Assembly (NCBI GenBank): GCA_951394405.1
Contig: OX596336.1
Span: forward strand, 4,402,001-4,466,000
Length of the DNA: 64,000 nt
Direction: 5' to 3'
Source: Coprinellus micaceus
Taxonomy: Eukaryota > Basidiomycota > Agaricomycetes > Agaricales > Psathyrellaceae
The number at the start of each line of letters is the position of its first letter. Positions within the stretch are counted from its first letter, which is position 1. The notes under the pieces were generated by a model. It was not told the origin of the DNA and made no database searches. It was given only the letters and a program-made list of their open reading frames with translations. The translations under genes were made by a program, and so were the position numbers. Positions 1-26,986 of this stretch are shown piece after piece.

Positions 1-1072
1 AGAAAGGCCAGGAATCTTTTCAGAAACTTGTCGATATCCTGACCAGCGACGACTTCAGCACAAAAGAAATCCGTGCCGCAAATTGGGACAGAATAAGCCG
101 ATCCCTAGCTGCATCAGAATTCGAAGATCCCGTGGACGGCTTCGAGTGGCTTGAGGATGGGACGTCTTGGCTGACAACTACGGTCCAGCTTGAAGTTCCT
201 TTCCATAGAACCTCCCTCAAACCTGGCGTGCACCATTACAACGTCCAGAACTTCCGTCATCGACCCCTTGTCCCTATCATTAAGGAACGACTTCGAGATA
301 TTACCTGAGGAGACTACTTCCATGTAGTCCCGTCAGACCTTCGATGGAATCCCAAAGCTGGAAGCAAAGAACACGGCGGTGCCGATGTTCGAGTCTATGG
401 TGAGCTATATAACTCCCCCGCCTTTCTCGACGCCTATAAGGAAGTACAGGTAAGTAGCTTGACCACATGTGGACGCGAAGCCGGACCGTGATCGTTTATT
501 TTGCAATTTAGAACCTGCCCCCAGAAGCGAAGGAGAGCTCCCTACCTCGCTATATCGTCGCCCTAATGTTCGCATCAGACGAAACTATGTTGGCTTCGTT
601 TGGGACGAGCAAGCTGTGGCCACTCTATATGATGTTTGGAAACGAATCCAAGCACCGGCGTGGCAAGTCCTCACTAAAACTCTTCAAGGAGGTCACCTAC
701 TTTCAGTCGGTCAGTCAATCAGTTGTCCACGGGTATTTAGGCTCTACCCCCCAGGTTCCAGTAGAGTTTCAAGATTGGTATCTGAGTCTCTCGGGCAAGA
801 ACAACATCGGTAACCCGTTATCAACGCACCTCAACCGAGAGCTATTCCACGCTCAGTGGAGAGTTCTACTCGATGACGACTTTCTCGAGGCATACGACGA
901 AGGGATAATTGTCGACTGCTTCGACGACGTTCGACGAAGATTTTACCCTCGCATTCTCACATACTCGGCAGATTACCCCGAAAGGTCAGTAGAGCCTCCA
1001 GCAAACCCACTCACGTTCACAATGCTCATCCGTCCCAGGGTAACAGTGGTAGGGATCAGGAATATGGGCGAC
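1..1072 (+). pseudogene. Plavaka-type transposase, 5' part (outer element), cut by window edge and retrotransposon
   Basis: Coding-like blocks are 3-449, 512-709, 755-984 and 1039-1072, separated by GT-AG introns. The translation carries segments I recognise from fungal Plavaka (CMC superfamily) transposases: FGTSKLWPLYMMFGN near 590-640, and RRFYPRILTYSADYPER near 940-984. The reading frame ends at 1072 in MGD and resumes exactly at 20125 as HPCPRC, restoring the family's Cys-rich CPRC motif. One in-frame TGA lies at 306-308 with no intron that would remove it. The N-terminal exons are outside the window. The enzyme would cut and paste its element in the nucleus, but this copy is dead from the nonsense codon and from the retrotransposon between its exons. 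The family call is from remembered motifs, not a search. Confidence 0.82.
1068..1072. repeat. 5-bp target duplication GCGAC of the chromovirus, left copy
   Basis: GCGAC directly precedes the LTR start TGTTACG at 1073. The same five bases follow the other LTR at 20120-20124. Five-bp duplications are normal for Ty3/gypsy integrases. Confidence 0.93.
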
Positions 1073-1207
1073 TGTTACGACCTCGATGAGGGAGTTGGAC
1101 AAGTGTCCGACAATTGGTCGACTCTGGGCAGGTCAATGGTCACTGATGTAATGATTACTTAACTTAGGTATCGAGTACGATGTTGACGATTGTTATATCT
1201 GATACTA
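1073..1207 (-). repeat. 3' LTR of the chromovirus, first piece
   Basis: These 135 bp match 19521-19655 of the intact LTR. The LTR is interrupted after GATACTA by the inner transposon, and its remaining 464 bp resume at 12961. Confidence 0.95.
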
Positions 1208-1486
1208 TGTCGGAAATCTGCCAGGTGCCTTACAAGACAATCTGCCTGATAAGATCACTGACATGCCGGATAAGCCGCCTTTTAAGTCTCCGCCGTTTCC
1301 AGTAAGGTGACGCCGCCTTGCGGAGCCTTATGGGGCCTGGCCAGAACCTTGTAAGTGCCTGGGTTACGCCGTTCAGGCCGAAATTGAACCGACAATACCG
1401 CCGTGTGATAAGATGGCGGTTTCAACAACGACGTTGCCTTCACATCTCTCCTCATTCCCTCATTCAATCGCTCGTAGGCTTGTGCT
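1208..1486 (+). repeat. Left terminal inverted repeat and subterminal repeat region of the inner transposon
   Basis: The 11-bp TIR is 1208-1218. The following 270 bp hold scattered copies of TGCCTGATAAG and ATGCCGGATAAGCCGCC, plus the palindromic-like GCCGCCTTGCGGAGCCTTA. The same short words recur at the right end, as expected for transposase-binding subterminal arrays. The transposase start codon follows at 1487. Confidence 0.8.
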
Positions 1487-4400
1487 ATGAGTGGGCGCCG
1501 TAGTAAGGGGGCCACCACACAGTGTAAACTATGCGAAGGCCACTTCCTGAACTCAGGATTTAGCAGGCATTATGCTAGTTGCCAGAAGAAGGTCGGGAAC
1601 TCGGTGAGAGGAGGCCCGTCCGCCCTTCTCACAGTGACCTCCGATGGTGACAACCCCCTCGTCTACCTACGTTTGCTGAATAATGAATATTTCTTTCTCA
1701 GGTGACGACTACGAGTACGACGATGCCATTATTGGTGTCAAGCGCCCAGTGACCCAGGTGCAGGCCGAAATAGACCCCGGGTATGTGTATGACCCCCTTG
1801 GTGAGCCTCCGCAAGTTTCAACGCGTGATTCCAGCTCAATTATTATACCTAGGGGTCTATTCGTCGCATGTAGCATCCCTCCCTCCCACTGGCACTTTCC
1901 ACAGTGACCGTGACACAAGCTCGCTCGACCCCTCCTTCCGTGCGGATTATTCAGTATCCACTCCCCAGACAGACAGCTCTGGCCACGTGTACGCACCTCA
2001 GACCTGGGAAGAAACAGCAGAGGAACAGCTCCATCGTGCGCCGCAGGTTGACGATATCAAGACCGTACCCCACCCTCTCAATGCCAGCCACAAGCGCACT
2101 CGATACTGCCCATACGAGGACTACACCACGCAGCTGCCCAAGCAGGGGCGTAAATGCGTCAAACGGGGAGCTGACCACGCGCCTTCGACCAGCGAGAGCA
2201 CCGTATCTACCGAAAAGGACGACTCTTATGGCCCCGACTTCCCGTGGACGCCATTCAACTCCCGCATTGACTTCGAGTTCGCCCAGCTCATGCAGTCCGC
2301 GAACCTCAATGAGTCGAAGATGAACGAATTTATCGCTATGGTCTACAAGATCGTTGCCGCACCTCAAGATTTCTCTCTTCTGGACGCTCGCCAGGTCAAG
2401 GAGACTTGGAGGTCGGCAACAGATCGATATGGCCAAGGTGTATGTCTTCTGTGATTATTAGCTTGTTGTATGTATCTAATATACTCGCTGTTGTTGTACT
2501 CTAGCTCCAGCGTGCCGACGTTCCGGCGATGTATAAAGGTGAACGTATTGTGTTTCCGCTGTGGCGTATTAAGGGCTGGGACTGGGTAAGAAGTCTGCTG
2601 CATGACCCGGATTTGAAGGGTGAATTTCGGTGGGATGCCGAGCAGCTTTTCCGACACAACGGCCAAGATTTCGAGCGTTTCATAAACGAGCCTTGGACGG
2701 CAAACCGCTGGTGGGAGATCCAGGTGAGTTCCTTGCCTATCCCCACGTATTGTAGGCTCAGACTGCCCCTTAGAGCTCGCTCCCGCAACGGGACGGCCAG
2801 CCTGCAGCTCCATTCTGCATTATCTTCTACGCCGACAAAACCAAGTTGTCTACAATGGGTACAAAGAAGGGGTATCCGGTGTATCTCCGGTGTGGCAATC
2901 TTCCCGCCCACATTCGCAACAGCGAAGGATTAGGTGGAGGGAGGATGGTTGGGTTGATTCCAATTGTATGTTCGGAGTTTTGCTTTTGGGGTACATACGG
3001 CAGATACATGCCTAATGGATGAAATTCTAGGTTCCCGAAGACAATGACAAGTCTGGAAAGAAGCCGTTCGTCGACTTCAAGCGAGTCGTGTGGCATGCGT
3101 GTATTGCCGAGATTCTCGAATCGCTCCGACAGTTCACCCAGTTTGGGTACCCATATATGTGCAGCGATGGGATTCAGCGCTGGCTCTACCCCATCATCCT
3201 AATTCTCTCGGGAGATTTCGAAGAACAGTGAGCTTCCTTTTCGATCGAGTGCCTTTGTTTATTCTTGTCCTTCGAACACTACTGACCGTGGTGGTGCAGG
3301 TGCGTGATGGCGGCGATTCGTGGCACAGGAAGTGGGTTTCCATGCCCCATTTGCCTCGCTTCTAACGAGGAAATGCCGGCTTTGGAAGGTGGCCTCGAAC
3401 TCCGTTCCACCGAAAAAATGAAGAGCATATACGAGACTGCCGAGGGAGAACCAACTGCGGCTGAGCGAGAGAAAGACTTAAAGGCTGTTGGCCTTCGGAG
3501 GGTTGAGGTAAGTCATCAATTGGTACTATCCATCCGTACAACAGCGAGATGGCTGAAGACACATTGCAGAATGCCTTTTGGTCGATCCCCTTCTCTGACC
3601 CCTACGCTATACTTTCCTGGGATCGTCTACATGCCTACCACAGTGGTTTATTCCGCAAGCATATTCTTAAAGAGTTCCTCCAGATCCTTGAGGATCCCGC
3701 AACTGGGAGCGGCACACAACGCCGAGCACTTAGCTCTCGTTTCGAGAGAAAGTAACCTTGCCTTCCACTTTGGCACCCATCCCACACTAACTTTTGTTCG
3801 TACTTATAGCCTGCAAGACATGCCTCGGTGGAGGGACCTTGCTCATTTCACTCACATATCAGAGTTCAATGAGTACTGTGATGGCCGAAAATATGAAGAC
3901 CTCTCGAAGCATCTCAGTCACTATGGAACGACCCCCTTGAAGGCCTATTAATTTAGTGTTCCAATGGGGCCTTAAGGGGGTCGTTCCATAGTGACTGAGA
4001 TGTCTCGAAGGTACGTGTCGTCAGATCATATTCCTGTTCTATCTCCATGCCTACCCTGCATTGATCACTTCACCGCTCAGATCATCATCTTTGCTTCACA
4101 CTGTGTCTTTCCGGAGAGCAACGAGCGAGCTTATCAATGGCTCGCTCTTGCACGCAGCTATCTGGAGCTCGACATGTGGTCGTCGCTGCAGAACCACACA
4201 ACTACAACGATTAGAATGGGACGGCAGGAGCTCAGACGATTCGACCACGAAACAAAGGTGCATTACACCCCAACGGTTATCCCCTTCCATTATAAATGGT
4301 GGCAGCTTTGCTGAGTTTGCTCACTTAAACAACACACTAGGTCTATACAGAGATTCACCCCACAAAGAAATGGAACTTCCCGAAAGCCCACTCACATGCG

Positions 4401-5497
4401 CACCTCTTCGATGACATCGAAAACAAGGGCTCAACGATCAACTTCAACACCAAGTACAGCGAGAAGAAGCACAAGAGCCAAAAGGAGAAATATGCCTTGA
4501 CGAACTTCAAGGATGTTGAGAAACAGGTTTTGTGTTCATGCCCTCCTTGCCGGGTCGAGAACTTGTTTACTTATTTATCTCTTCATTTACCAGATCGCGA
4601 GGATGACGCACGAAGAGCTGGCCGGCGTGATCATTCAGCAACGGATCAGGCAGCATGACTCGGAGGTGGAGCGGGAGTGGGAAGCGGGACTGAGCACAGA
4701 CCCAGACGTTGAGGAGGATCTAGCTGACACCCCCATGACCACTGCGCCCAACTCTCCCAACACTTGTTGGGTGACAGCTGGCTCGGGCTCACGCATGTCA
4801 CTTGCAGACGCTGCCCGGGGTATGCTTCCAGAGTATCTGGCGGCGTTTAACAATCTGGCGGCGAAGCTTACATGCAAAATGCGTGCTGACCGTTCGGTTC
4901 GAGGCCGTGCTTGGTCAGTTTCGGAGACCACAATGGTGCGCTGTAATGAATTCAGACCTATTGAAGTAGGACAGCTTACCATGGTCCTCCATCAACTTTT
5001 AGGTCATCAAGTATCATGTCGTCAAAGCGGTCTACACCTCCATCGAGGATTCCCAGATGACAACCGATTTTATTCACGCCAACCCCTCCTTCCACAGTCG
5101 CCCTCGGTATGATTGCGCACTATTCGACGCTGGGAACGGAGAGTACACAGTCGGCCGAGTTGTCTCCATTCTTGGAGTCCCCGACAATATGAACATTGAA
5201 CGCCAGTACGCCTTGATCATCCCTTTCGATCTCCCCATACAGCAGACACCTGACCAAGCGCCGAACCTTGCTCGAGGTGCCAACCTTCGGGTCAAGCATC
5301 TACGATCGAGGAAGGCGGAAAACTCAATTGTAGTCGCCATCGAGCACATTGTTCGTGGAGCCTTGATGATCCCAGATTGGGGGAGCCCATTCAAGGATCA
5401 GTATATCGTTATGGATGTTGTTGATGCCGACTTCTTTTTAAGAATGCGATTGCATGGTTTGGGCGATTTGTTGGTCTCTGATGGATCCTTGAAGTAG
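1487..5497 (+). CDS. Plavaka-type transposase of the inner element (interrupted by a MITE)
   Basis: This is a multi-exon gene. The N-terminus has a zinc-finger-like CKLCEGHFLNSGFSRHYASC. Further exons carry family segments: PWTPFNSRIDFEFAQLM (about 2250-2300), WWEIQ then KGYPVYLRCGN (2860-2900), GFPCPICLAS (3340-3363), CVFPESNERAYQW (about 4108-4143), KAHSHAHLFDDIENKG (about 4385-4430), and a C-terminal IVRGALMIPDWG...VDADFFLRM. These match the order seen in Plavaka transposases. A 93-bp insert at 3910-4002 follows EDLSK and introduces a stop at 3949-3951, so the full protein cannot be made from this copy. Outside the insert the exons appear open. Exon edges are my reading and some are approximate. 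Confidence 0.83.
3902..3909. repeat. 8-bp target duplication TCTCGAAG, left copy
   Basis: TCTCGAAG precedes the foldback insert and is repeated at 4003-4010 directly before the splice donor GTACGT. In the empty site the exon would end CTCTCGAAG followed by GTACGT. Confidence 0.9.
3910..4002. mobile_element. 93-bp foldback MITE in the inner transposase
   Basis: The first 29 bases (beginning CATCTCAGTCACTATGG) and the last 29 are exact inverse complements, leaving a 35-bp spacer that is itself partly paired (AAGGCC). It is flanked by the 8-bp direct repeat TCTCGAAG. Eight-bp duplications suggest mobilisation by a hAT or KDZ-type transposase. No coding capacity. I saw no second copy in the window. 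Confidence 0.92.
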
Positions 5498-8400
5498 CTA
5501 TGTATGTTTACCTGGTGTAATTTATTTACTATGCTCACAACTTTACTCCTGCTTAACCATTTGTCCCCGTGGTTAACCGTTGTCATGCGTTCCGGGTCGG
5601 TCTGAGCAAACCCTTCTAGAGTAGGTAAAATGAGTCGGGCTCGCTAACAATGGGCCTTCACGGATAAAAAATAAGGTAAAGCATACCTATTTGCTCTTAC
5701 TCAAACTCAGTGTGCACAGAAACGGCTGCATCCTCAACTCGCCCTTTCAATGATGGGCGCTAAATAGTCCCTATCAGTTGTTCAATTTCCAGGTCCCCTT
5801 CTAACCAAATTTGTGTGCGGACTGTATGGGAGTCAAGCTTTACTTATTATCTAAGAGTTTCAATACCTTTTGAGAGGAAGAAAACCCTCAATATTTCGTC
5901 ACACTCGTATATGTCCTGGCTCGGACGAGGGGACGCTCGCCACAAACACAAGGCCAAACAATGTCTGATCGCTGTCCGGGCCATCATCCATCATTTTAGG
6001 CTTAATCCTGGACCACATCCTCTTCCGATTGCATCCCACACACACTCTGGCCATATCCACCATGCTTGGATCTCCTCACAAGCTCCTCAACTCACTGAAG
6101 AGCTCACTTGTCTCTACTCTCCCTTCAGCCGATCCTGCGCATCGGCGCCCCCGCCCGATCGAACCACCGCAGAGCCCCCATTCCACGCAAACGCCATACT
6201 GACGCCTAGTATCCAGAGGGTCACCGCATGGTCTCGCCCGCTACCGTTTTAACAAGATCCGATGTCGATGATTCCCTCTCCCGGCTCGAGTGTTGGAGAT
6301 AAAGTTACGCTTCCCAATCGAATGTGAGCTCAGGTGCATTCCTTAATATCATCCCAGAGCGTAGGCTCAAGGTCTTCTTCCAGCTTCGTTAAGGAATACG
6401 CTGCCCAACCCCAACAACATCCTAAACTATCCGGTCGTCCGCCCCGTAGCTCAACCGCATCGACACTTCGTTCCATCCTCCCCAAGTTCTCCTCAGCGGC
6501 GTTCGTAACACCTCCTCATTCCACATGTGTTATTCGCCTCGCGGAAGCCGTCCCTCCCCTCGAGCTCCGCATGGATCGCAAGAGGAGCCTCTCGACTTAC
6601 AAGCCACACAGCCTGCGCTAGAGGGTACCACGCTCAGTTCAACGGAAGTGTAGGAATACCTCCCAACCAACATACCCAAAGATGGGCTTCCCTCCTCGTT
6701 TCACGACACCCATTTAGCCCCTCCCTGGCCAGCAGAGGCTTCATCGTGGCTTAGACGCCGTCGTCGACCGAAGGCCTGGGTCAAATTGGATTGACGATAT
6801 GCGGCATATCAACGTGAAGGTCGTACCTTCACCTTCAAATCAGGTCGTACGCGAACAAGCCACAGGACTCCGCTACACCCTCAGATACCATGGCCTCCTT
6901 CGCCACTCTCCAATCGATCCGCCGTCCACGTACTCCAGTATTCAAGGCTGCCGAGAGAACGATGCCAGCTCCGCAGGAAGCAATTCGACATACCGCACCC
7001 TCCCGTCCCCTTACCGTCTCCATACCTGTCCTCCACCAAATGAAGCATTTTCCTCTCCCTTGACATCCCCGTTTCCACCTCCAAAATCCCTGCACACACG
7101 TCCGATGTGGCTGTACATCGTTGACCCCGATCCCCCACCCCTGCAAATCGGGGGTCAGCTCTCGAAAATCGGCGATGGCTGATGGAGAGAGCACCATTGG
7201 CTTGAACAGGTGCCTCAGGGATGTGCAGGGATGATGCCGGGGTCGATAACAAGACGCGACCTTGGGGCTGTTCAGTCGCTGCTGTTGCCCTCCCATCTGT
7301 AACCGATGCCTCCCTGAAGCGTCGCAAAATATGGCCAACGCCACTCATGACCGCCCGCAGGACATCCAAAACACCACGCACAACCTCAAAGTAGCCCTCT
7401 CAACCAACTAAATGGCGGCGAGAATTAGATCTCCCACCCCCAGTTGTTCGCAAGCACCTGCCGCCGAGAGCTCATGCACCCGGATTCCGTGCCCACTTCC
7501 ATGTCCAACTCCACGCCCCACGCCTCCCTCCTCATCTCTCCAATCTCAACTCAACTCAACTCGAGACGTGTTCCCAACACGTCGGACCATGCGTACCCAA
7601 ATACTGTCCCTCGATGACGGTCTGCCCTCCCACGCGAGGTCACCAGAAGTTGCTCGGGCCAGGAAGCAAGACAAGGCCTGGTTCCATCCGACCCACGTAA
7701 CCATGCTCAGGCCCTCGAACCGAACCCGAAGCCGGGGCCGGGTGGTATCTGTCCGATGCGCGGTCGCATAGACGAGTCGAGGAAGGTCGACGACCAGCGC
7801 TCAGCGGGAACGGGCAAGGAGAAAGGTATAAATGTGAAGGCTGGTGCCTACTTTTCGCCATGAGTGTACGTGGCCGAAGTCTGGTACTCTGAGGAGGCCT
7901 GACGCGAGGAGGCCACCGAAGGCGCCAGATACACTGGGCGCGATCCCGAAGAAGATACCAACCCGCCAGTATGAGGTGCTGGAGCTGGACGCCTGGAGGA
8001 AGGTGGCAAGGGGACGAGGGCAAGGAAATCGAGGGCAGAGGTGCGGTGAGAAGGGATGGTAACATAGGAAGGATGTCTGACGAAGGAGAGCAGAGAATGG
8101 AGAAGAAGGTGATGGGAGGGGAGAGGGTATTGAATTGACGAGTGAGATGGGGGAGGGTAGCTTGCAAGGGGTGTGCATACCACATGTGTATGTGGGTGCA
8201 GGGACGGGGACCTTGGTTTGTGCCTGGGGCCTTGGAGAATGCAGGACGGCTTGGCGGATGGGCCTTTTGAAGAGGTCCGGAACAACGAGGAGGTGAGTGA
8301 GCAAGCACCACACTCAATAGTTGAAGGGACACTTACCTTACTCACAGCGCTGAATTCCCTCAAGGGTCGAAGGACTTGGGACCTTCGTGTATGACGTGAA

Positions 8401-9551
8401 TTACACGTCTAGCCACCTGGAGCGAGGGAGATGGAAGGCGAGACAGAGAAAGTGAAAGATGAAGGTACAGCAACAGCGGCGGCCAGTGCGCGGGAGAAGA
8501 GGGGAATGGGATTCACAGTTCGCCACCCCCCAGCTTCAACGAGACCTTGCATACAGCTCAAGCCCCAGCGACTCACATCTTTCCCCTCTCACAATCCGCC
8601 ATCTGCTCCCCGATCTTCCTCAGCCGTGCTCCGCTCAGTCCACCGCCATTTCATACACAACGAGCTAGACAACTGATCACCACTGGCCTCCATGACCCCC
8701 TCCCCTCCCCTCGACTCTCTATCTCACGACTGGCTTCTTATTTCGTTTTGCATCTGCCAGACGAGCGCTAGTGATCTTCCTTTCCGTTCACCGGAATTGA
8801 ATACACCCCTGTCCCATCCCGTGCATGTCACCCTGCATCGCAACACCAAGACACGATCCTGGAGGATGGACCATGACCTTCATCACTGGCCCTCTACCAG
8901 CTAGGGATCTGGTTTTCATGAACACAGTTTCTCCTTTCATATTGGTGCAGCCAGGGTGAGGACGCTCCCCTCTTTCCCGCACCTCTCGTTCAACATTTGA
9001 TGTTGAGCCTACCCTTATGATTCTTATGACAGATCCCTGTCCATTTGCGACGTAGTATATATAATGGACATTGTATTATTTCTTCGGTGTTGCCCGTGCT
9101 GTTGACGCAGCAACCACCTATCTTGGCGCACGCACTGTGCTCGCAGAACAGGCCTCAGGTTCGAGAATGGTGCCTAACTGCCTGAACGGAAAGGTGAGTA
9201 AACGTAGACCTCCTGTCAGGAATTGTGCACTGACATATGTTTCAGTACGATTAATGTCATGCACGATCTGTACCCTCCTATATGTGTAGGGTTTCGGCAT
9301 GTATACCCTGACAGCGACACCAAAAAAAGGATGTTTGGGGTGTATGCTATAGGGTCGAAGCAATCTCGTGGTGGGGCTGTGTTTCATTGATACACGACGC
9401 CTTTTTCTCCTGAAAGCCCAGCCTTAAACCTCATGTAAGGTGTCTGCGACCTAGACTCTAGGGCGCGTGTCTTCAACGTGGGGGCAAGTATAATACCTTC
9501 CTGCCCCTGTCAGTTCAAACATCCAACTCCTCTCCTCCATTGACTACCAGA
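5498..9551. other. Gene-poor interior of the inner transposon
   Basis: No recognisable gene in about 4 kb. Short open frames on both strands overlap and have low-complexity Ser/Pro/Arg-rich translations, as expected from long C/T-rich tracts (about 6000-7800 and 8520-8900) and a G/A-rich tract (7800-8480). A TATATATAA lies at 9056-9064. A CT-rich stretch just before 9552 looks like a fungal promoter for the accessory gene. The segment could be a decayed cargo gene or regulatory DNA; I cannot decide. Confidence 0.5.
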
Positions 9552-12084: not shown

Positions 12085-12296
12085 AATTTCTTTATGTCCC
12101 CCGCATTTACTCTATTTATCGCACACTGTCATTATTTATGGTCTTCGATACAACCTCATATCTATTTGTGCGCTCATTGCGACTCGTAGTCGGTGGCTCC
12201 ATTTTTGTGCTGCCTAGCCTGGGGCTTGGTCTGGGGTTTGTGCCCTCTTGCGCCTTATCAGGTCCTCCCAAACCATTATATTTAACCTAGTTTTCC
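12085..12296. other. 3' flank of the accessory gene
   Basis: AT-richer sequence after the stop codon. It presumably holds the 3' UTR and polyadenylation signals. No gene seen. Confidence 0.4.
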
Positions 12297-12590
12297 TCTA
12301 TGTATACGCCGCTGTGGCTAAGTGGAAAGTATGCCGAAGGTTTGTATGTATGCCCGTGCGCGAGAGTTCGAACCTGCTAGAAGTCACTTGTAACCGAATA
12401 ATGAAATAGCCTTGTAACGCCCTTGTAACTCCCTTGTAATAACACTTGTAACCCAATAGTCGTGTAGCACCCTTTGTAGTGACGCTTGTATATAACCGTT
12501 GTATTCTCTCCTCTCTAATCTGTACGATCTGTGTAACAACCGCCTGTAGCAAAAACCTAGTCATGTACAACAGTGTGCCTTGACTTCAAT
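12297..12590 (+). repeat. tRNA-like, SINE-like segment
   Basis: The sequence near 12312-12322 reads TGGCTAAGTGG, a good RNA polymerase III A box. At 12366-12376 GAGTTCGAACC resembles a B box. The spacing is about that of a tRNA, but stems do not fold well, so it is not a working tRNA gene. It is followed by a body with repeated CTTGTAAC words (about 12387-12455). This layout suggests a tRNA-derived SINE or its relic. No poly-A tail or target duplication was identified. Confidence 0.4.
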
Positions 12591-12639
12591 GAGATACTAA
12601 TACATTCGAATAGATACTAATACATTCGAATAGATACTA

Positions 12640-12958
12640 TAGATATCGGTCTAATGAAACCTAGCCGCTAACCATTAGCGGTGGCAATGTTTTCACCTCC
12701 CAGGTAACGGGCCTTATAGGGGCCCGGCATCTAATAACAATGCCTCTGCCTGATAAGCGTAGCTCGGTTCCCCCTCACGGGAGCCTGGGCCCCATGCCTT
12801 ATAGGGCTATGAGACTCCCGCCCTATAAGGGCTGCCCCGGCCTTAGCGGCATGGCCATGGCTTACTCGGCTTTCTTGTCTCTTATCAGGTGTCTGATAAG
12901 GCAACAGCCGCCTTGCGCGCCTTAGCGGCCTGATAAGGCGGTCCGGGGATTTCCGACA
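12640..12958 (+). repeat. Right subterminal repeats and terminal inverted repeat of the inner transposon
   Basis: The TIR is 12948-12958. Inside it lie multiple GCCTTATAGGG/CCCTATAAGGG and CTTATCAGG/CCTGATAAGG words in both orientations, the same vocabulary as the left end. Just before, at about 12594-12633, a 20-bp unit (AATAGATACTAATACATTCG type) is tandemly repeated. Confidence 0.8.
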
Positions 12959-12960
12959 TA

Positions 12961-13424
12961 CCAAGAACTATGTTGGCGATAGCTCGCTTGGACTTAGGCG
13001 TTGGTTGTTGTCTTATTGGCTTAATTGGCTTGCTCTTAGTTGTCTTTGGGTTTTGGCACAAGGCACTATTTGATAATGGGGAAAAAGTATAACAAGCTAA
13101 AGTACATGGGTCTAATCTATAGGGTTTATATACCCATGGATACTAGTCGCTATGAGTCAATATAACTAACAAGTCAATATAACTATGAGTCGATTACAGT
13201 CAAAGACAAGTCATACTTAGTCTAGGCAGACTAAGGATGAGTCGAATATGAGTCATAAATAAGATGACTCAATAATCGTCATAACGAGTCAACGAGAGTC
13301 AACTACTTTAACCAAAACAACAAATAATAATACAAAAGAGTTTGGCCAAAAGAAAAAGAATAAGTCCTAGACCGAAGATAAAAATATAGCGCATATTACA
13401 AAACATGTGGAGCAAAGCGTAACA
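12961..13424 (-). repeat. 3' LTR of the chromovirus, second piece
   Basis: These 464 bp correspond to 19656-20119 of the intact LTR with no difference that I could see. The piece ends CGTAACA at 13424, next to the polypurine tract. Confidence 0.95.
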
Positions 13425-13455
13425 TTACCCCCCTCACAAAATTTGAAACCCTGAT

Positions 13456-17400: not shown

Positions 17401-18224
17401 TTCTTGCTAAACACATCGAAAAATTCATGGTACGCTTCCGGTAATTTGGCCTTGATTTCTGCTTCGGTTTTCTCTTCGATCTCATCGTCAAAATCGTCAA
17501 ACTCATCAAATTCGTCGGGAAGTTCAGAATATTTGGGGAGGATGAGTTTGCGTGATAGTGTGGTTCTCACAATATGAACGTGGGTATATTCTTCTTCTAC
17601 GTCTTCATCGTAGAAGTAGACTTCGATTTCTATTTCAGTGTCGGTGTCAACAATATTAATGCTAGTGTCGTTTTCGGTTTTTGGAATTTTGATTGGAATG
17701 GCATTAGTCTCGGTATCCCACCAAGTGAGAGTTCCGAGTTTCCAATCGATCATGGGGTTTTCGTCTTGAAGCCATGGGAAACCTAAAATTAGTGTCTGTT
17801 TTCCCAGGCCGCAAATTAAAAGTTGGTGTTTCTTTGTTTTCTTGTCGATCATGAGAGGTAGTCGTACATAATGGGTAATCGTTCCATATTTGTTGGGTGT
17901 TCCATCAACATTCTTTGCTTCGAGGGGATATCGAAGTTTAGTGATGGGCAATTGATTTCTTTGGGCAAATTTTTTGTCAATAAATTTTCCTCCTGCTCCA
18001 CAGTCAATAAAACCTTGAGTGGTGATAGTTCGGTCATCGTGGATAATCGTAATGGGAATGTGCATGCTTTGGTTTCTTATTTCGGCTATCAGCATGGATC
18101 GGATGCACAGCGATGGAGAGATAGTCGAGTTTTCCTCCTTCACTGAAAATCCTCCATCTTTCCAATGGAAAGTTCTTGGAATTTGGCGAAGATTTCCCTT
18201 TCTTCTTCTCCCGTGTATTGACAT
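14445..18224 (-). CDS. pol: Chromovirus Pol polyprotein (protease, RT, RNase H, integrase, chromodomain)
   Basis: The frame is 1,259 residues long from its first ATG and lies in the -1 frame relative to gag, overlapping it by 85 bp. Domains in order: aspartic protease with IDCGAGGKFID (near residue 75); reverse transcriptase with active site YMDD (plus-strand 16782-16793); RNase H with EADASKHASGAVL; integrase with an HHCC zinc region (HHDTATVGH ... CAECQQ), then D (SIDFITD), D (SDRGPQF) and E (TERVNQEIE); and a C-terminal chromodomain (YEVEGIINHRV ... FLIKYLGY ... SKWL). It replicates and integrates the element. The frame is open and all catalytic motifs are present, so this copy may be active. 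The 50 residues before YMDD hold an unusual internal duplication. Confidence 0.96.
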   Translation of the reverse strand: MSIHGRRRKGNLRQIPRTFHWKDGGFSVKEENSTISPSLCIRSMLIAEIRNQSMHIPITIIHDDRTITTQGFIDCGAGGKFIDKKFAQRNQLPITKLRYPLEAKNVDGTPNKYGTITHYVRLPLMIDKKTKKHQLLICGLGKQTLILGFPWLQDENPMIDWKLGTLTWWDTETNAIPIKIPKTENDTSINIVDTDTEIEIEVYFYDEDVEEEYTHVHIVRTTLSRKLILPKYSELPDEFDEFDDFDDEIEEKTEAEIKAKLPEAYHEFFDVFSKKNADKFPASTKYDHAINVKDTFDPRRMKPYILSPDQEKEAKDFLKENQKLGRIRPSRSPMGSPVFFVKKKNGKLRLCQDYRYLNEHTISDAYPIPRIDDLLKRFQKAKYFFKIDLKWGYNNVRIKKGDEWKAAFMTQGGLFEPTVMFFGLKNSPPTFQRLMDDVIHEHDEIEESPKMELTRTNNVRDIVHAHEELEEAPWVEVYMDDVLGAGETKEQCRKEAKRTLAKLRKAGLPANIDKCAFEVEEADFLGFIIGHGKIRMDPDKIKGLTEWPVPTKLKELRSFLGFGNFYRRFIKNYSKIAVPLHALQGKDVPFVWSDECNTAFNTLKEKFTSYPVLHLPDPDKPYQIEADASKHASGAVLTQLDENRARHPICFMSKTFDSAQRNYEIYDRELLAIIQALEEWRPFIQGSPFTTTVYSDHQNLTYWRNPQRLSPRQARACLTLSKYDFELKHQAGTKMFQSEALSRRPDLCQDDEDPKEVTMLPENLFVNLIDTALQEQILNSDKMEQEAMDALRLILEEGPTDLQNDLEDWTVETKDNKHMLFRKGKAYVPEDIELRRKIVKLHHDTATVGHPGELGTFNAVREHYWWPGMRKFIKAYVKGCAECQQFKINRQPVKPTLLPIVGPESNCPFTQLSIDFITDLPTSKGYDSIMVVVDHGLTKGVILEPCNKTITAKQTADAFIRRVFTDYGLPDKLISDRGPQFAAKTFRDLLEKLKIDSSLSTAFHPQTDGGTERVNQEIEAYLSIYCSANPSTWSQALPILQFVHNSRRHADRTHTPFELIMGTQPRALPGAFDKTNFPANEERFKDLQKSRNEALSAHELARSRMIEQTSRTWKPFKVNDEVWLEAKNLKLHYRSKKMQPKHLGPFKVIEIIGPRAYRLELPSQWKIHNVFHISLLSPFRTTDTHGPSYPQPPPDIINGEEEYEVEGIINHRVKRNGEKEFLIKYLGYDENESKWLREDELGNCQEILDEYKEDNGLSL

Positions 18225-19147
18225 AGAAGTGAGTGAATATTGACTGCTGCTTCCTGGATAGGAACTTTCTTAGTGGAAAGTGTGGCTACTTGTCGGTTGT
18301 TTTGATCGTTTGGAGGTGGCCGCTGTCTTGGTACATAGTTTCCTGATTGGGATCCGTACCGTGGTGGATATCCTTGATTTCTTCTTGGAGAACGACAGTC
18401 TCTTGCGAAGTGACCCTCCTTTCGGCAGTTGAAACATGCTTTCTTATTTAGGAGTTCCCTTCTTTCTTCCGTGGTAATCGCGTCGACATCCATGGCATTT
18501 GGATCTCTGGCGGCTTGTCTTCCCGGGTTTGGCCTGAATCCTTGCGATGCGAATGGTCTTGATAGTCCCATTCGTTGTTCCTTCTCTCTTCTCCATTTTC
18601 CATCAGAAAGGATGGCCTTTTCCACCCAATCCTCAAAAGTTTCGGGTTCATCCAAATAAGACTTCATTTTATCAACTATTGCCGGTTTGAGTACACCCTT
18701 GAGGTAGTCTAGTGCGACTCGGTCATTGTTGACAAGGGAGAAATTTGCTGTGGCAGCAATTTGTCTCCAATTGGTTATGAAGGTTTGGGCGCTCTCCTTG
18801 TCTTGCTTCTTGTTCTTCAAGTAGTACAGAGCATCATCTTGTACATACTTCTTCCTGAAGTTCTTCTCGAATTTGTCCCAAAAGTCTTTGTACTTGTCGG
18901 TTTTGTATTCTTCTGAATCCATGTATAGCTTCCTCCATACTTCGGCTTCTCCATCCGTGAGTTTGGATAACACAAAAATGACTTTCTTCCTATCTTTGTC
19001 CTTGTATTGTTCTTCGTAATAGTCGAAGAAAAGAGAAAGAGAGTCTTTGAATGTGAGAAAATCATTTCGATCTCCATTGTAGTTCTTGACGTTTACTTTG
19101 GCTTCGGAGTTAGTGCTGGTGACATTGATGGAAGTGGAGTCAACCAT
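18140..19147 (-). CDS. gag: Chromovirus Gag with CCHC zinc knuckle
   Basis: The 335-residue frame from its first ATG has a helical capsid-like region (YNGDRNDFLTFKDSLSLFF near residue 23 onward) and a canonical nucleocapsid knuckle CFNCRKEGHFARDC near residue 240. It packages the element's RNA in cytoplasmic particles. Coding-like sequence in the same frame continues upstream to about 19513, next to the LTR (NKLHYHVALINERNN, then a charged coiled-coil-like stretch), but without an ATG. The true start may therefore be a non-AUG codon. The pol frame starts within the 3' end and would need a -1 shift. Confidence 0.9.
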   Translation of the reverse strand: MVDSTSINVTSTNSEAKVNVKNYNGDRNDFLTFKDSLSLFFDYYEEQYKDKDRKKVIFVLSKLTDGEAEVWRKLYMDSEEYKTDKYKDFWDKFEKNFRKKYVQDDALYYLKNKKQDKESAQTFITNWRQIAATANFSLVNNDRVALDYLKGVLKPAIVDKMKSYLDEPETFEDWVEKAILSDGKWRREKEQRMGLSRPFASQGFRPNPGRQAARDPNAMDVDAITTEERRELLNKKACFNCRKEGHFARDCRSPRRNQGYPPRYGSQSGNYVPRQRPPPNDQNNRQVATLSTKKVPIQEAAVNIHSLLCQYTGEEEREIFAKFQELSIGKMEDFQ

Positions 19148-19508
19148 GTCAACGTCTTTGTCTTCAACTTCGATCTTAGGTGGGGATTCGGTTTCTTTTA
19201 CTTCCTTGATAGATTCTTGTCTTTGAATCTGCTGTGGTGGTTCGAATGACTTCTTTGATCCTCCTGGCGTATTAGTTCTGGATCCTTTCTTGGATGCTGG
19301 GCGGCTGTACGGCTTGGTTGCTCTTCCTTTTCCTTTGGAAGATGCTTGTTCTTCTAGAAGCTTTCTAGCGAGTTCTGCTTCGAATTCACGTTTGGCTTTA
19401 AGTTCCTTTTCTGCTTGTTCTCGATCTTCTTCGAGTTTCTGTGCTGCTTGTTCCGCTAATCTGGGCGAGCCGTTGTTGCGCTCGTTGATGAGGGCAACGT
19501 GATAGTGG

Positions 19509-19518
19509 AGCTTGTTAT
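19509..19518 (-). promoter_or_regulatory. Putative self-priming primer-binding site
   Basis: On the element's sense strand the LTR end CGTAACA is followed by GA and then ATAACAAGCT. The exact complement AGCTTGTTAT occurs in the LTR sense strand at 19793-19784, 34 bases after the start of a TATATAA box (19827-19821). That is where transcription would begin. This is the Tf1/sushi arrangement, in which the RNA 5' end primes reverse transcription. No tRNA-like TGG primer site was seen. Confidence 0.65.
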
Positions 19519-19520
19519 TC

Positions 19521-20119
19521 TGTTACGACCTCGATGAGGGAGTTGGACAAGTGTCCGACAATTGGTCGACTCTGGGCAGGTCAATGGTCACTGATGTAAT
19601 GATTACTTAACTTAGGTATCGAGTACGATGTTGACGATTGTTATATCTGATACTACCAAGAACTATGTTGGCGATAGCTCGCTTGGACTTAGGCGTTGGT
19701 TGTTGTCTTATTGGCTTAATTGGCTTGCTCTTAGTTGTCTTTGGGTTTTGGCACAAGGCACTATTTGATAATGGGGAAAAAGTATAACAAGCTAAAGTAC
19801 ATGGGTCTAATCTATAGGGTTTATATACCCATGGATACTAGTCGCTATGAGTCAATATAACTAACAAGTCAATATAACTATGAGTCGATTACAGTCAAAG
19901 ACAAGTCATACTTAGTCTAGGCAGACTAAGGATGAGTCGAATATGAGTCATAAATAAGATGACTCAATAATCGTCATAACGAGTCAACGAGAGTCAACTA
20001 CTTTAACCAAAACAACAAATAATAATACAAAAGAGTTTGGCCAAAAGAAAAAGAATAAGTCCTAGACCGAAGATAAAAATATAGCGCATATTACAAAACA
20101 TGTGGAGCAAAGCGTAACA
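19521..20119 (-). repeat. 5' LTR of the chromovirus, intact
   Basis: 599 bp, beginning TGTTACG and ending CGTAACA. On the sense strand it has a TATATAA box at 19827-19821. It is the undamaged reference showing the pre-insertion site of the inner transposon (GATACTACCAAG at 19649-19660). Confidence 0.95.
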
Positions 20120-20124
20120 GCGAC

Positions 20125-23100
20125 CACCCTTGCCCTCGGTGTCTGGTCGCTCTTTCCGACATTTCCAACATGGGGACCCCTGAGGACTTGGCGATGCAAG
20201 AAGAGCAGCGTCGCAAGGACGATGCCGAGCGCCAACAGAAGATAGCCTCTGCACGAAAAATCATCCACAAGCAAAACTACAGCGTCAACACGGACGAGGT
20301 CGAGAAGCTATTGAAGCCGACGTCCTTGGTACCCTCGATGGTGAGTACCCAATTGGTATCTGCCTTGCGCGGGGTCCGTATCAACCCCATAGCACAAGAC
20401 CCACTGACCACAATCTTGTCCGTGTATAATAGAATGCTTTCTCCGAGCGACTGTCACCCCGTGGCCTCGATGTCTACAGTCTAATTGCAGTTGATATCCT
20501 GCATGAGGTGGAAATCGGGGTATGGAAATCTTTGTTCATTCAACTCCTCAGAGTTTTGGAGGCGATCGACAAATCTTTTCTCAATGTTCTCAATGGAAGG
20601 TTCGTGATTTCGTATCTGTGTAGGAGTACCCCGAAATAGGCTTAATACCTCGAATTGTCAGGTTCCGCCAAATCCCCACCTTTGGTAGGGACACAATCCA
20701 GCGGTTCAGAAATAATGTCAGCGAGATGAAGCAACTTGCAGCTCAGGATTACGAAGACATCTTACAGGTGCGTGGCTCTGTTCCGATTGTATATCGTCTC
20801 GCGAGAGCTATCCTGACATCGCAACTTTGTTTTTGCCAACTCACGAGCAGTGCGCCATGGCAGCTTTTGAAGGACTGATACCAGGTGAACACGGCGGTCG
20901 GGTTCAAGATCTCCTCTTCATCTTTGCTCACTGGCACTCCTTGGCGAAATTGAGACTCCATACCGACGACACTTTATCGATACTCGATGAGTGGACAGTC
21001 AAGCTTGGTGCTGAGTCACGCCTTTTTGTTGCTCGGACTTGCGACGTTTACGAAACCCAAGAACTCAAGAGGGAATATCAATCTCGAAATCGGAACGAAG
21101 CTCGCAAAAAAGGGAAGGCGGTTGACCCCAAAACCGCGCCAGGCATGAACACCAAGGCAATGACTCCGGTCCCACCAACAACGAACGTCCAAACCGCGAC
21201 CTCCGAGGTCGGGATCCAAAACCCAAAATCAGGCACCAGCCAAGCCGCTCCATCCCGGGCCAAAGGAAGAAACACCAAAGCCAGTAATTCCCCCAAAAAG
21301 AAAAATACAAAGTCTAAGGCGCATACCAGTGCTGCAACTGCCCCAAGCCACATAGCTCAAGCCCCCAGTTCCGCCCCTGGGGCTCGGGCAGAAGCGGTTA
21401 CGGTGACGCCATCAACCTCTACAACCCACCTTTCGACGACTGGTGCGTCGCCTAGTGAAATTCAGACCGCCTTGGGTGAGCGTGGCCTTGACTTGCGAAA
21501 CATGGCCACTTATTGACGATCCCTTCCCCGCTGTATCCATTAGCTGATAGTTTCGGCACGCCGGAAGATGGTAAGTCACCGTCTCGAAGTCCCCCGCCAA
21601 CTTGATGTCCCATAGCTGATAGCTGTGTGTCCGTCATCGGGGCAGATACCCGTAGACTGAAGACCTGGAGCCTCAATACGTCTAAATTCCATGCTCTAGG
21701 GGATGTCTCCAACTACATCAGGAGGTTTGGAACGACGGATTCATACTCGACACAGTTGGTGAGATATCACCAAATCTCAGCTCAGCAGCACAGCTTTCTG
21801 ATGGGTCGCTCATTCCTTCTGGCAGTCCGAACGATTCCATCGCTTTCCCAAGGCACGTTACCGGCGAACCAACAAGAAGCAAACTTCATACCAAATTTCT
21901 CGCATACAAACACGTCAATCTCAGATTAAAAGGCTCAGAAAGCAGCTGTCTCCAGCCTCCAAAGAGGGCCCATCCGAATCCGAGCGGGACACCGCCTCGT
22001 ACTTCATTGGCAAATCTCAGAACAAGCCCATCTCCTTGTCGCATTTCTTGAGGGTAAATGCGAATGATCCTGCCCTAAGAGTGAGTTCCGCCTCTGTTGG
22101 GTCGCTCTCCACTCTTCCCCCCAAGGCTGTGTGTGGTCAATCTTCAGTGCAGCGCTCACCCACTCTCCTTGCAGGGTTTCTATCCAAAGCTGAGGCGCTA
22201 TCTTCTCCCTCAAATCATCGAACGGCTCCTGCAAGAGGCCAAACGATCCCCTGATGATTACAGGGCCGCTCTGCCTGTTCTGAAAGACCTCCATGCTACC
22301 GGTGCGTTCACTGCAGCACATTCCAATGCTACTTACATACATTCCGATCGTTTCTACCACCACAGCATCCTTCAAATCAATTACACAACCTACGATTGTC
22401 GAAGAGCACAAGACACCCTCAATCCGTATACCTCTCGGCGCAACGTGATGTGCCTTCGTCCCAAGCTCCCAGCGGACCCAAGTCCTTTAGGCCCTGAGGC
22501 TCAATCGGAAGAGCCTCAATCGGAGGAGCATCACGGTGGCCGCTTCGTATACGCTCGCGTCCTTGCTGTCATCCACGTGAACGTTACCTACATGGGCCCA
22601 GGAATGCTGGATCATCGCCCACGTAGATTCAATCTCCTCTGGGTGCGCTGGTATGAGGCCCTCGACAGCCAGTTCACAGAATCAACCCTATGGACATTGA
22701 AGCGGATGGAGCGTGTAGAACTAAGGCTCCTAAAGGATCCCGAGGCCTGTGACTTCATCGACCCGTCCGACGTCGTTCGAGCGGCCCATATCATTCCCAG
22801 ATTCTCGGAGAAGATGCGATACGATGAGACCACTCCGGCCAACAAAATCTATTCGAAATGTGCTAAGGAAGCAGATGATTGGAAGGAGTATTATATCAAC
22901 CCGTGAGTCTATTCGTGCCCTGAGATAGCCTCAAATCCTTTATTCATGAACCTAGATTCGTTGACCGCGATATGATGATGAGGTACCATTGGGGAATGGC
23001 GGTGGGACATGTACACACGGGTGGTCTTCATAAGCTCGGCGAGGATGGTGACCTACCTGGTGTGGGCGCGGCCATATCACTTCTACGAGTAGGCGCGACT

Positions 23101-23313: not shown

Positions 23314-25366
23314 TTCGATTGTCGATACGTTATACTCTACCGACCACTTCTTGCTTTTGTATTTCTTTCTTTGTTTCTTTGTTGCTTTATCCCTTTCTTT
23401 TTGCGGCAACCATCGTTACGCGTTACTACCGATCCCTTGCTTCGGAGCGTGTTTCGACAGAACTAGTGTTTATTTTCCGAGCGTCGCATCGCTTACTACA
23501 ACATCCAGTTCTGCCGAGTTCTTTGCGACGTACATCCCCCTCACCCACGCAATTCCCCGATGACTTTATCGTAGTTCACATCCTTAGAAAGCTCCGGATA
23601 GTATAACTAGCATACATTGACTCGGTGTCAGTATTGGACTGTGTCCCCTCCCAAGCCACCACGATGGATCGGCACTGCTCCTACGCTGTTGGCTATTTCT
23701 CGATGGGTGCGTAGTCTTCAACCAATTCTATATCAGCGAAGGCGACAAGAACTCTTAACAACGACCTTCCCCCTACAGGCCCAACCGAGCTTACGCAATG
23801 TCGGCATGTGGCACTCCTGGCGTTAACACCCACTGTGCTCCTCTGCGTGATCTTCAGGGATTGGGTTGATGAAATGGTCGGTGCATCATATGTGCACATC
23901 ATAGGAAGGTGACTGCCCGCTAACAACTGCTTGAAACCCTCCTCTCCGCTTCGCCTATGTCCCCGCGACCTTCCTCAAAAAGATTCATTCCCTGTTCCCA
24001 TTCGACGAACACTGGGTGCATCTCAACACGGAGTCGTGACCACTCATGGTTCTGGTCCACTCCAAATAGCCCTGCAGGTGGAACATTGTTGGTGGGATTT
24101 CGAGGATACGGGAGACCACAGCCATCCACTGAGCCACCTTCAAATCCCCGCCTCCTCTGAGGAGGCATGGCCCTATGCTATAGGTCTCCGCATGGTATGT
24201 CGCACTTCGGGTCCCCCTGGGGGCCATCCCCCTATTGCAGAGCTTTAGGATCTCGCTGACGTGTATTTCGTTCTCCTAATGATATAGGTCGAGCGTCAGC
24301 ACCTGCTTTCAAAGTGGCTTCACAACAGCTCCTCGATGAGGAAGGTCGGCATTCGGGTTCCATGTCTAGTACCGGAAACCGGACTTCCGCTCCAGCTATT
24401 CGGAACGCCGCCCAGTGATACTGCTGCTGTCAGAGGCTTGATGGAACTGCTATATGCCGGGCCCAGGGATGAGAATTCGATTCCACTATCATACCCCGCC
24501 CGTGGATCGTCCGCAGGTAAGTGTCAGCTCCAGTCGAATCTCTCCCAGTCCAATCGCTAGCGGACCCACTCTGACGTACTGCGGGATTCCTCCTCTTAAA
24601 TAGTTTGCCTGTGAGTTGATAGGACACTCGAACTGCCTCTCGTTTGCTAATCCTATACAGCTGGCTCGATAGAGCGTTTATCATCACACAAGGTGTGGAG
24701 GATGCCTTAGTCCTAAAACCTACCCTTCTTTGCCTACTTGGGGATGCCCCTGAATGCCTGCCTATGTCATCCCTCCAGGGGAGTCGCCGCGGCAGCGTCT
24801 CCTGCACCTTTCTCAACGACTCGCGATGCTTCTGCTTCGCCTAGCTTTACCCCCCTGAAGCCTGGTTTGATACAAGCGGTGCGATCTGTTTCATTCATCG
24901 AGAATTGCCCTTCATCACTCACTCGTCCTTCAGAAGTCATACAACCTGCATCGTGCTTCAAAAATGGTGCTTCGGCGGCTACGACTAGCAGCGAACCGCG
25001 AGAAGGCCACCACGGAACACAAATCCGGCTCGTAGGATTTAGCTTTGAACTAGTACACAACTACATAAGGCGTAGCATTATTTTCAATGGTGTGACTCTG
25101 TGAGCCTGGGACTAGGAAGAGACTCTGCCACCACGGCCGCTGAGATTATGGTGGCAGGGACTGCCGCATCACCGGGAGGGGTGCGGGATCTGATGCACAG
25201 GCTCCCATACGCGCTGATGGCTATTGCTCGTTGATCAAAGTGTTTGCCGGGACGGATACCCAACATAAGGACCATTTAAACCCCACCGAATTTCGGCAGT
25301 CTACACACTCCCCCAAACCTCCCTAATACGACACGGTTCACTTCATCGTCCAAAAGTTCCTTCCGA
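23314..25366. other. Interval between outer transposase and DUF6698-like gene
   Basis: No gene that I can support. T/C-rich sequence follows the transposase stop (23330-23410), probably the 3' UTR. Several short frames (23600-24840) could be relics but do not join into a recognisable protein. The last 100 bases before 25367 are CA/CT-rich, promoter-like. Confidence 0.4.
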
Positions 25367-26986
25367 ATGGCCTCCGCTACCGACAGTGCAGAAACGCCTT
25401 GCCCGCCGAGGTACGGAACCTCCGGCACCCAGCCCGGAGCGGAGGAGGGAGCGGGAGTCGGTCAGAAACATCCAAGTGCTTTGAACCTAGGCCCGAGGAA
25501 GCGTCTGTGAGTGTTGCCTGAGTTACGAGGTATGTAGAAATGAAGTTCATGACTTTTCACATTCTAGGAACCTTCACACCGACCCTCTTATTCATCATGG
25601 TCGCCACTTCGGGCGGTCAGTGTATGCATTCGCTAACGTCCACGCCTTACTACTGGCAGGGATCAATGCGGATGAGGACGTCCTTCCTGAGACCCAGCAG
25701 TAAACAATTAAGTCCCTTCACTAACGATTAGCCCGAACTGACACACGGACAGGGAGAGGCGTGAGTTGCGGATTTTTCATCAGCTTCTTCGCCTCGTCCC
25801 TCATCTCGAAGAGAGAATGATGGAATGTAGTGAAGAAGAGCTCATGTCTATCGCTACTATGGTACTCCTATTCTTTAACGCAGCTAGATTTCGAACGGCT
25901 CACCCGCTGACCGCATTCCATCATAGCTCCAGAAGGGTGCGGCAGGTGCTCGATCGGACGACACTAAAACCCTGAAAGGGGTGATTATCGATTGGTTGGT
26001 GGAACCTGGAGGAGCGCCCTTGGTTCCTCAACTATACAGAAATGTGAAGATCAATCGTGTAGAACGATGCAAGTATGACCCACTGTAAGTGGGGAGAGTT
26101 CGATATAGAGGTATTCTTTGTAGAGATAGAGTTGACATGAGCATTGTCTTCCAACAAATCGAGGTTTTAACCATGACCGAACCGGATTTCTTCTTTGCCC
26201 ACCCGACCTCGACTGGAACGACAAAAGGTTCGTGGTGTGCCGCCGAGACGCAACCTCTGCAAACTAACTTTTATTCAGTGTTAGGCAGCAGCTCAAGGAC
26301 AAGTCTATCACTGTCAGTGGATCCCACTGGCCGATATTTGTCTACCAAAATGAGAAGTACGATGCAGAACAGCCTTGGAAAGGGTTGTTCCGAGGCCGAC
26401 TGTTAGTCTTGGTGCGTACTTCTCTTCGTCTCATCCGCCCCAGTGGTTGAGTGATGTGAAATAGGGATTCAAACACACCTTCACCAGCCCAAGTTCTGTT
26501 GATGAAGACCCCAAAGCGACGCGTTCAGGCAATGCACGGATTCATGGAATGACGCAAGTTACTCATGCCTCCCTCGCATATGTGGCAACTCAGGTGCGTT
26601 CAACGCCTCCCTGACCAAGAGCATCGTTGAGAAACCCTCGCACAGGTTCGCTTTTCCCTCACATCGGCATCGATATTCTCCCGATCCGACAGGGAAACGG
26701 ACTCCGAGACCTTTTACACATCTGTTCTGGAGGTTCTTGAAGATCCTGAGGAGCAAGCTGAGGTCAAAGACCTCTTGAATTGGTGGAACCAGTGAGCTAC
26801 TATCAACACCTTTCCCTGACTATCATTGCAACTCAATCACCAAGGAAAATATTCCCATCCTTTTCCACGACACGTCGACTCGTGCCAACCAACAGCATTC
26901 TAGCGAAGTTGAAGGAGCGTCGAATCGCCATCAAGAAGACTGCCGTCGAAAATGCAAGCCAGCAACCTCTCCCGGCTCAAGCGTAG
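25367..26986 (+). pseudogene. DUF6698-like accessory protein of the outer Plavaka element, broken by an LTR-like insert
   Basis: Eight exons (25367-25506, 25568-25699, 25753-25861, 25927-26227, 26279-26411, 26465-26593, 26646-26791, 26845-26986). Skipping the 99-bp insert and one 5-bp duplication gives 375 codons with no stop. Segments typical of the Agaricomycete family I know as DUF6698 are present: LQKGAAGARSDDTKTLK, the block NVKINR ... GFLLCPPDLDW around the insert, HWPIFVYQ, PSSVDEDPKATRSGNARIHG and LLNWWNQ. With the insert, the frame meets a stop within a few codons unless the GTAAGT inside the insert is used for splicing. The function is unknown. Its position matches the accessory gene of the inner element. 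Confidence 0.78.
26058..26156 (+). mobile_element. Short LTR-like element, deleted copy (99 bp)
   Basis: It begins TGTAGAACGATGCAAG and ends GTCTTCCAACA (TG...CA ends) with a 5-bp duplication AATCG at 26053-26057 and 26157-26161. Its first 47 and last 51 bases match the two ends of the 383-bp copy at 32299-32681. The middle is missing, and the junction lies at the shared word GTTCGA. TG...CA ends and a 5-bp duplication point to a solo LTR. Confidence 0.88.

What the first reader, a model, noticed from the sequence alone, without database searches (positions are those of the whole stretch)
1..26986. Four-level transposon nest with every junction readable
Outer Plavaka transposase (frame stops at 1072, resumes at 20125) contains a chromovirus (GCGAC duplication). 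Its 3' LTR contains an 11,751-bp Plavaka element (TA duplication), whose transposase contains a 93-bp MITE (TCTCGAAG duplication). Each empty site can be rebuilt by eye. The order of insertion follows from the nesting, and the two LTRs look identical, so the chromovirus, the inner transposon and perhaps the MITE are all recent.
Basis: seen in the sequence. Interest (0 to 1): 0.85.

Follow-up and report, generated by a model that had tools for sequence, protein, structure and literature searches.

The report
Mobile elements nested four deep
In this fungal chromosome a transposon was split by a retrovirus-like element, which was split by a second transposon, which carries a tiny third one; the junctions check out, but such nests are ordinary in fungi.

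Summary
The nest is real. The chromovirus (1073-20119, minus strand) is flanked by GCGAC; its 3' LTR is cut by an 11,751-bp element (1208-12958) flanked by TA, and both LTR pieces match the intact 599-bp LTR without a difference. A 93-bp hairpin MITE (3910-4002, flanked by TCTCGAAG) lies in that element's transposase. Relatives in the same genome show the empty sites of the chromovirus (four loci, one only weakly) and of the MITE (one locus). The inner element fits PlavakaA (2-bp duplication, TGT..ACA ends, PF18759).

Corrections: the MITE may have ridden in with the inner element, so nesting orders only three of the four steps. Identical LTRs are the family norm: 15 other LTR pairs differ at 0-3 of about 600 bases, while 25 insertions differ from one another by at least 2.5%. 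Zero differences only bounds the age, below about 0.2-2.4 million years. The chromovirus lacks about 444 bp in gag. The outer end at 26986 was not supported.

Unexpected: this chromovirus family has a conserved third gene after pol (302 aa, two zinc knuckles), with only three unnamed matches in the protein database searched. Overall, a well-documented new member of a known kind.

The parts
1..1072 (+). Outer Plavaka element, upstream part of the transposase gene; continues upstream of the window
   Evidence: PF18759 E 1.5e-12 on 512-1072; relatives at 65-74% DNA identity; the upstream 10 kb aligns to a relative in pieces from about 1.6 kb before the window
1068..1072 (.). Target site duplication GCGAC, left copy
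   Evidence: single copy of the site in four relatives
1073..1207 (-). Chromovirus 3' LTR, outer piece (135 bp)
   Evidence: 100% to 19521-19655
1206..1207 (.). TA duplication of the inner element, left copy
1208..12958 (+). Inner PlavakaA element, 11,751 bp, ends TGTCGGAAATC / GATTTCCGACA
   Evidence: same two ends in the copy at C11:2134983-2145128; 2-bp TSD and TGT..ACA ends match the published PlavakaA definition
1774..5494 (+). Inner element transposase gene (several frames), interrupted by the MITE; gene limits are approximate
   Evidence: PF18759 E 1.2e-7 on 2505-2930; reading frames conserved in the C11 copy
3902..3909 (.). MITE target site duplication TCTCGAAG, left copy
3910..4002 (+). 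93-bp hairpin MITE; 24 identical copies in the genome, this one included
4003..4010 (.). MITE target site duplication, right copy, directly followed by a donor-like GTACGT
9658..12081 (+). Second gene of the inner element (several frames), no Pfam family over its cut-off; gene limits are approximate
   Evidence: conserved in the C11 copy at 41-80% protein identity by piece; Pfam scan
12959..12960 (.). TA duplication of the inner element, right copy
12959..13424 (-). Chromovirus 3' LTR, inner piece (466 bp including the second TA)
   Evidence: 100% to 19654-20119
13456..14364 (-). Chromovirus third ORF, 302 aa, two zinc knuckles, between pol and the 3' LTR
14445..18269 (-). Chromovirus pol open frame: weak protease match, RT, RNase H, integrase, chromodomain
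18140..19522 (-). Chromovirus gag open frame, with a gap of about 444 bp relative to two other copies near 19461
   Evidence: Ty3_capsid and zf-CCHC; gap
19521..20119 (-). Chromovirus 5' LTR, intact, 599 bp
20120..20124 (.). Target site duplication GCGAC, right copy
20125..21520 (+). Outer Plavaka element, downstream part; end not located
   Evidence: aligns across the join with four relatives, one weakly; relatives of 20120-21520

Best explanation
Successive cut-and-paste and copy-and-paste insertions. A Plavaka element (outer) was hit in its transposase by a chromovirus, whose integrase duplicated GCGAC (shown: duplication, matching LTR ends, empty sites in relatives). A PlavakaA element then inserted into the 3' LTR of that provirus, duplicating TA (shown: one LTR intact, the other split, no other difference). 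A 93-bp MITE, moved in trans by an unidentified transposase, inserted in the inner element's transposase, probably at an exon end, and brings in a stop (shown: duplication, empty site in the sister copy, stop inside the MITE; exon end inferred). That the MITE came last is inferred, as the simplest order, because it breaks the transposase that the inner element would have needed to jump by itself. The chromovirus is one insertion of a family in turnover: insertions are young, but the lineages are old and under strong selection (inferred from the survey).
For: Junctions and LTR identity; empty sites; 39 uninterrupted LTRs of other copies; same inner termini with GG/GG flanks at the C11 copy, so a 2-bp duplication without a strict TA target, as published for PlavakaA (passages of PMC12730594); 24 identical MITE copies among 28 within 3 mismatches, reversed-pattern control 0; of 20 copies whose flanks were read, 8 have 8-bp and 11 have 7-bp duplications, 1 has none; family turnover: 15 LTR pairs with 0-3 differences, against at least 2.5% between 25 insertions, and RT dN/dS 0.013 over 91 pairs.
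Against: No reads or second strain could be examined, so an assembly error at a repeat cannot be formally excluded. The outer element's ends were not found. No transposase source was found for the MITE. The only full-length sister of the inner element seen is 12-31% diverged by piece, so it cannot time the MITE.
Confidence: 0.95

Rival explanations
1. The MITE was already inside the inner Plavaka when that element jumped into the LTR; the jump used transposase from another copy.
For: Nesting does not order these two events; another copy of the element exists on C11 and lacks the MITE.
Against: The MITE breaks the transposase frame (stop at 3949-3951), so transposase would have to be supplied in trans. 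In a search with 3800-4110 only the window and the C11 copy matched the transposase flanks of the MITE (40 of 73 candidates scored), so no other MITE-bearing copy was seen.
Confidence: 0.3
2. The two LTRs are identical because gene conversion between them erased older differences, so the insertion is old.
For: Not tested directly; 15 of 15 other LTR pairs are also nearly identical, which repeated conversion would also give.
Against: The paired elements keep matching 5-bp duplications (14 of 14 loci read by eye), and the RT stretch has no stop in 14 of 14 copies; conversion would have to reach nearly every pair.
Confidence: 0.07
3. Assembly chimera: a collapsed or misjoined repeat produced one or more junctions.
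For: No reads are available here; the LTR and the MITE are multicopy.
Against: Each junction has its own exact target duplication, and relatives show matching empty sites; the nearest of the 39 other LTRs compared differs by 3.5%, so the window's LTR pieces were not borrowed from one of those.
Confidence: 0.03

Closest known systems
PlavakaA (Kojima 2025, PMC12730594, passages read)
   Same: 2-bp target duplication, TGT..ACA ends, Plavaka transposase domain PF18759
   Different: 11.75 kb with a second gene (9658-12081) of no recognised family; no phylogeny was run here
Fungal chromoviruses (Novikova et al. 2010, PMC2864245, section 5 and passages read)
   Same: LTRs with TG..CA, 5-bp duplication, gag with CCHC, pol with RT, RNase H, integrase and chromodomain; [quoted passage not shown]
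   Different: A conserved zinc-knuckle third gene after pol; whether it equals theirs was not testable; this copy has a gap in gag
Nested transposons of Laccaria bicolor (PMC3411680, passages read)
   Same: 382 nests or clusters are reported there, with LTR and TIR elements in them; that genome also has MITEs
   Different: Here all junctions of the three inner levels are exact; most nested or clustered elements there were incomplete
Hairpin MITEs with 7-8 bp duplications
   Same: Short, no coding sequence, terminal inverted repeats, many near-identical copies
   Different: Parent family not identified. By the passages of PMC12730594, 7 bp with CA..TG ends is reported for Kyakuja (which has no inverted repeats), 8 bp for Zisupton, and 8 or 7 bp for hAT; none of these was shown to be the parent

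Membership tests
PlavakaA (inner element) | Plavaka transposase domain | tested here: met
   PF18759, 31.8 bits against a cut-off of 26.3
PlavakaA (inner element) | 2-bp target duplication | tested here: met
   TA/TA here, GG/GG at the C11 copy
PlavakaA (inner element) | TGT..ACA termini | tested here: met
   both copies
PlavakaA (inner element) | Place in the PlavakaA branch of a transposase tree | not tested
   no reference set in hand
Plavaka (outer element) | Transposase domain | tested here: met
   PF18759, 47.8 bits
Plavaka (outer element) | Terminal repeats and target duplication | tested here: inconclusive
   no convincing pair found
Chromovirus | Chromodomain at the C-terminus of pol | tested here: met
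   PF00385 E 7e-12 at residues 1218-1268 of 1274
Chromovirus | RT and RNase H before integrase | tested here: met
Chromovirus | LTRs with TG..CA and a short target duplication | tested here: met
MITE | Short, inverted repeats, target duplication, high copy number, non-coding | tested here: met
hAT or KDZ (parent of the MITE) | A transposase gene between the same terminal repeats | tested here: inconclusive
   27 hAT dimerisation and 107 KDZ matches; compared by eye with the repeat ends, none was seen between matched ends

The most novel reading that the evidence does not exclude
The chromovirus family carries an undescribed accessory gene between pol and the 3' LTR: a protein with a mainly helical middle and two zinc knuckles, open in 40 of 42 matches of this genome and under selection in the 12 close copies tested, perhaps a second nucleocapsid-like nucleic-acid-binding protein. 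More distant versions (35-60% identical) exist in the same genome; that they too sit after pol was not tested.
Probability: 0.4. Interest if true: 0.5.

Novelty: new member of a known kind. Interest (0 to 1): 0.32.

Why it matters
A nest in which the layers can be checked against empty sites gives a clean case and a relative clock for three mobile-element families in one fungus. The wider survey matters more: the chromovirus insertions that keep both LTRs all look young, yet none of the 25 insertions compared has a close relative among the others, so their parents were probably lost or sit in other individuals (inference). Population sequencing could test this directly. The 24 identical MITE copies point to a recent burst, and the conserved third gene is a target for functional work.

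Tried and rejected
Outer element ends: an inverted-repeat search with 2- or 3-bp duplications gave only chance-level pairs. The two near-identical relatives on C13 and C5 stay alike beyond the stretches fetched, so they gave no boundary. MITE parent: longer elements with the same ends (251, 1288, 1438 bp) showed only short frames (up to 155 aa), which were not searched against any library; no hAT or KDZ gene was seen between matched ends. A MITE 'birth' at C12 (MITE and a longer relative at the same site with the same duplication) was considered and dropped: the locus is a tandem duplication that includes the flank, and unequal exchange explains it as well. Copying error as the main cause of the divergence between copies was rejected: dN/dS 0.013. 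Third ORF as a copy of gag: no support. Against solved structures its profile's best match was the zinc region of ribosomal protein eL43 (E 0.00035), with retroviral nucleocapsid only at E 0.12; this does not favour the nucleocapsid-like reading. Its predicted fold is weak (mean pLDDT 56) and gave no match at E 0.001. Third ORF in viral contigs: none. Papers: six searches ran; their listings showed no title on such a nest or on this third gene. I read passages of three papers (PMC12730594, PMC9674265, PMC3411680) and passages plus one section of a fourth (PMC2864245); most subscription papers are not held, so this is weak evidence of absence.
Full report
What was checked. Its Plavaka transposons, chromovirus and intron-like interruptions fit a fungus of the Agaricomycotina (inference).

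Chromovirus junctions. The right LTR is 19521-20119, 599 bp. The left LTR is in two pieces, 1073-1207 and 12959-13424, both identical to the right one. Joining the outer flanks over one GCGAC gives a stretch that aligns through the join with four of four relatives of the outer element: two identical loci on C13 and C5 at 68%, C12 at 66%, and C3 by a 55-base ungapped piece at 73% only. The 5-bp site reads GCGAC, GCGAC, GCGAT and GGGAC there.

Inner element. 1208-12958 starts TGTCGGAAATC and ends GATTTCCGACA, flanked by TA. A second copy at C11:2134983-2145128 ends at the same bases and is flanked by GG, so the duplication is 2 bp but not always TA. Kojima 2025 (PMC12730594, passages read) gives 2-bp duplications and TGT..ACA ends for PlavakaA. 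The two copies are 88% alike over the first 2.7 kb and 69-85% in the further matching pieces. Both hold a transposase gene and a second gene downstream. Four other places match only one end (46 or 81 bases) and were not studied further. No TET/JBP family was named by Pfam in the inner-element pieces scanned (nine, two). In all, 20 ORFs or ORF pieces were scanned out of a list of 122 ORFs of 80 aa or more.

MITE. 93 bp, folding into one hairpin, duplicating TCTCGAAG. The C11 copy has the site once, as TTTCGAAG, without the MITE. The second duplication is followed by GTACGT (GTATGT in the C11 copy), which looks like a 5' splice site (inference), so the MITE would sit at an exon end; the frame 3286-3951 stops inside it. 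In the genome 24 copies are identical, this one included, and 4 more differ by 1-2 bases. Of 20 copies with flanks read, 8 have 8-bp and 11 have 7-bp duplications, and 1 has none. The parent transposon was not found.

How recent. Zero differences in 599 bp gives a 95% upper bound of about 0.19 million years at 1.3e-8 per site and year (the rate used for Laccaria, PMC3411680, passage) and about 2.4 million years at 1.05e-9 (a rate recalled, from no call). Control: the LTR search scored 40 of 89 candidates. I fetched the 39 that are not the window's and used them with the window's right LTR. Of 15 LTR pairs, 10 have no difference, 4 have one and 1 has three (two pairs share a C12 LTR). After collapsing pairs, and the three identical C12 LTRs, 25 insertions remain; their 300 comparisons range from 2.5% to 9.2%, median 5.1%. 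So identical LTRs are the rule here, and none of these insertions is a close relative of another. Insertions of which only one LTR was compared cannot be dated this way. A 543-bp RT stretch from 14 elements, the window included (of 15, L104 gave no match and was dropped), has no stop, median dS 0.34, median dN 0.0047 and dN/dS 0.013 over 91 pairs. That fits old lineages kept active by selection, with each insertion young, and argues against error-prone copying as the main cause. It implies that the parents of these insertions are gone or are in other individuals (inference). The 40 LTRs were chosen by likeness to the window's, so more distant copies are not covered.

The copy itself. Against two other copies (L003, L007) the window's chromovirus lacks about 444 bp near 19461, in the N-terminal part of gag; that the frame is kept was checked against one of them, L003. 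No other pair in the survey has so short a spacing. Whether the loss came before or after insertion is unknown.

Third ORF. Between pol and the 3' LTR lies a 302-aa frame (13456-14364, minus) with a zinc knuckle. In this genome 42 matches were found, 40 without an internal stop; some are pieces of one frame. Across 12 close copies (66 pairs) median dN is 0.082, median dS 0.58, and the ratio of means 0.14. I aligned 18 of the 19 sequences read, leaving out L134, whose frame ends early and which has Q for one of the histidines; in the 18 the cysteines and histidines of two knuckles are invariant, and 14 of 18 match the Pfam zinc knuckle. Searched alone it had no match among 761 candidates from 5.8 billion proteins; as a profile it had three of 6512 candidates, all unnamed, and that database may hold few fungi. 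Its closest solved match is the zinc region of ribosomal protein eL43, not a nucleocapsid. It is not recognisably a copy of gag, and the fold model is weak. Novikova et al. 2010 (PMC2864245, section 5 read) mention additional ORFs of unknown function in some elements, so the kind may be known.

Verdict. Nests are common in such genomes (382 nests or clusters in Laccaria, PMC3411680 passages). The order of three steps is shown; the MITE's place is likely but not shown.

Noticed in passing
window 13456-14364 (-): Conserved third gene after pol in the chromovirus family, with two zinc knuckles and three unnamed database relatives.
   Followed up: yes
L004, L005, L012, L100 (C12:195700-214300): Tandem duplication of a chromovirus with its flank; a 93-bp MITE in one copy and a longer relative with the same end in the other sit at the same site with the same duplication GTTTTGGA.
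   Followed up: partly
L026/L027, L116-L119 (C13 near 0.9 Mb and C5 near 3.19 Mb): About 11 kb shared by two chromosomes at 99.3-100% identity around an outer-type Plavaka gene.
   Followed up: partly
C13:978970 and 1001262; C3:3980067 and 4002359: Two Plavaka-like matches with the same 22,292-bp spacing on two chromosomes, suggesting a large duplication.
   Followed up: no
window 9658-12081 (+): Second gene of the inner PlavakaA element, conserved in its sister copy, without a recognised family.
   Followed up: partly
L041 (251 bp), L043 (1288 bp), L054 (1438 bp): Longer elements with the MITE's ends; the two halves of the longest match the same part of L043 in opposite directions. Possible relatives or parents of the MITE.
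   Followed up: partly
whole genome G000: KDZ transposase matches are abundant (107 matches).
   Followed up: no
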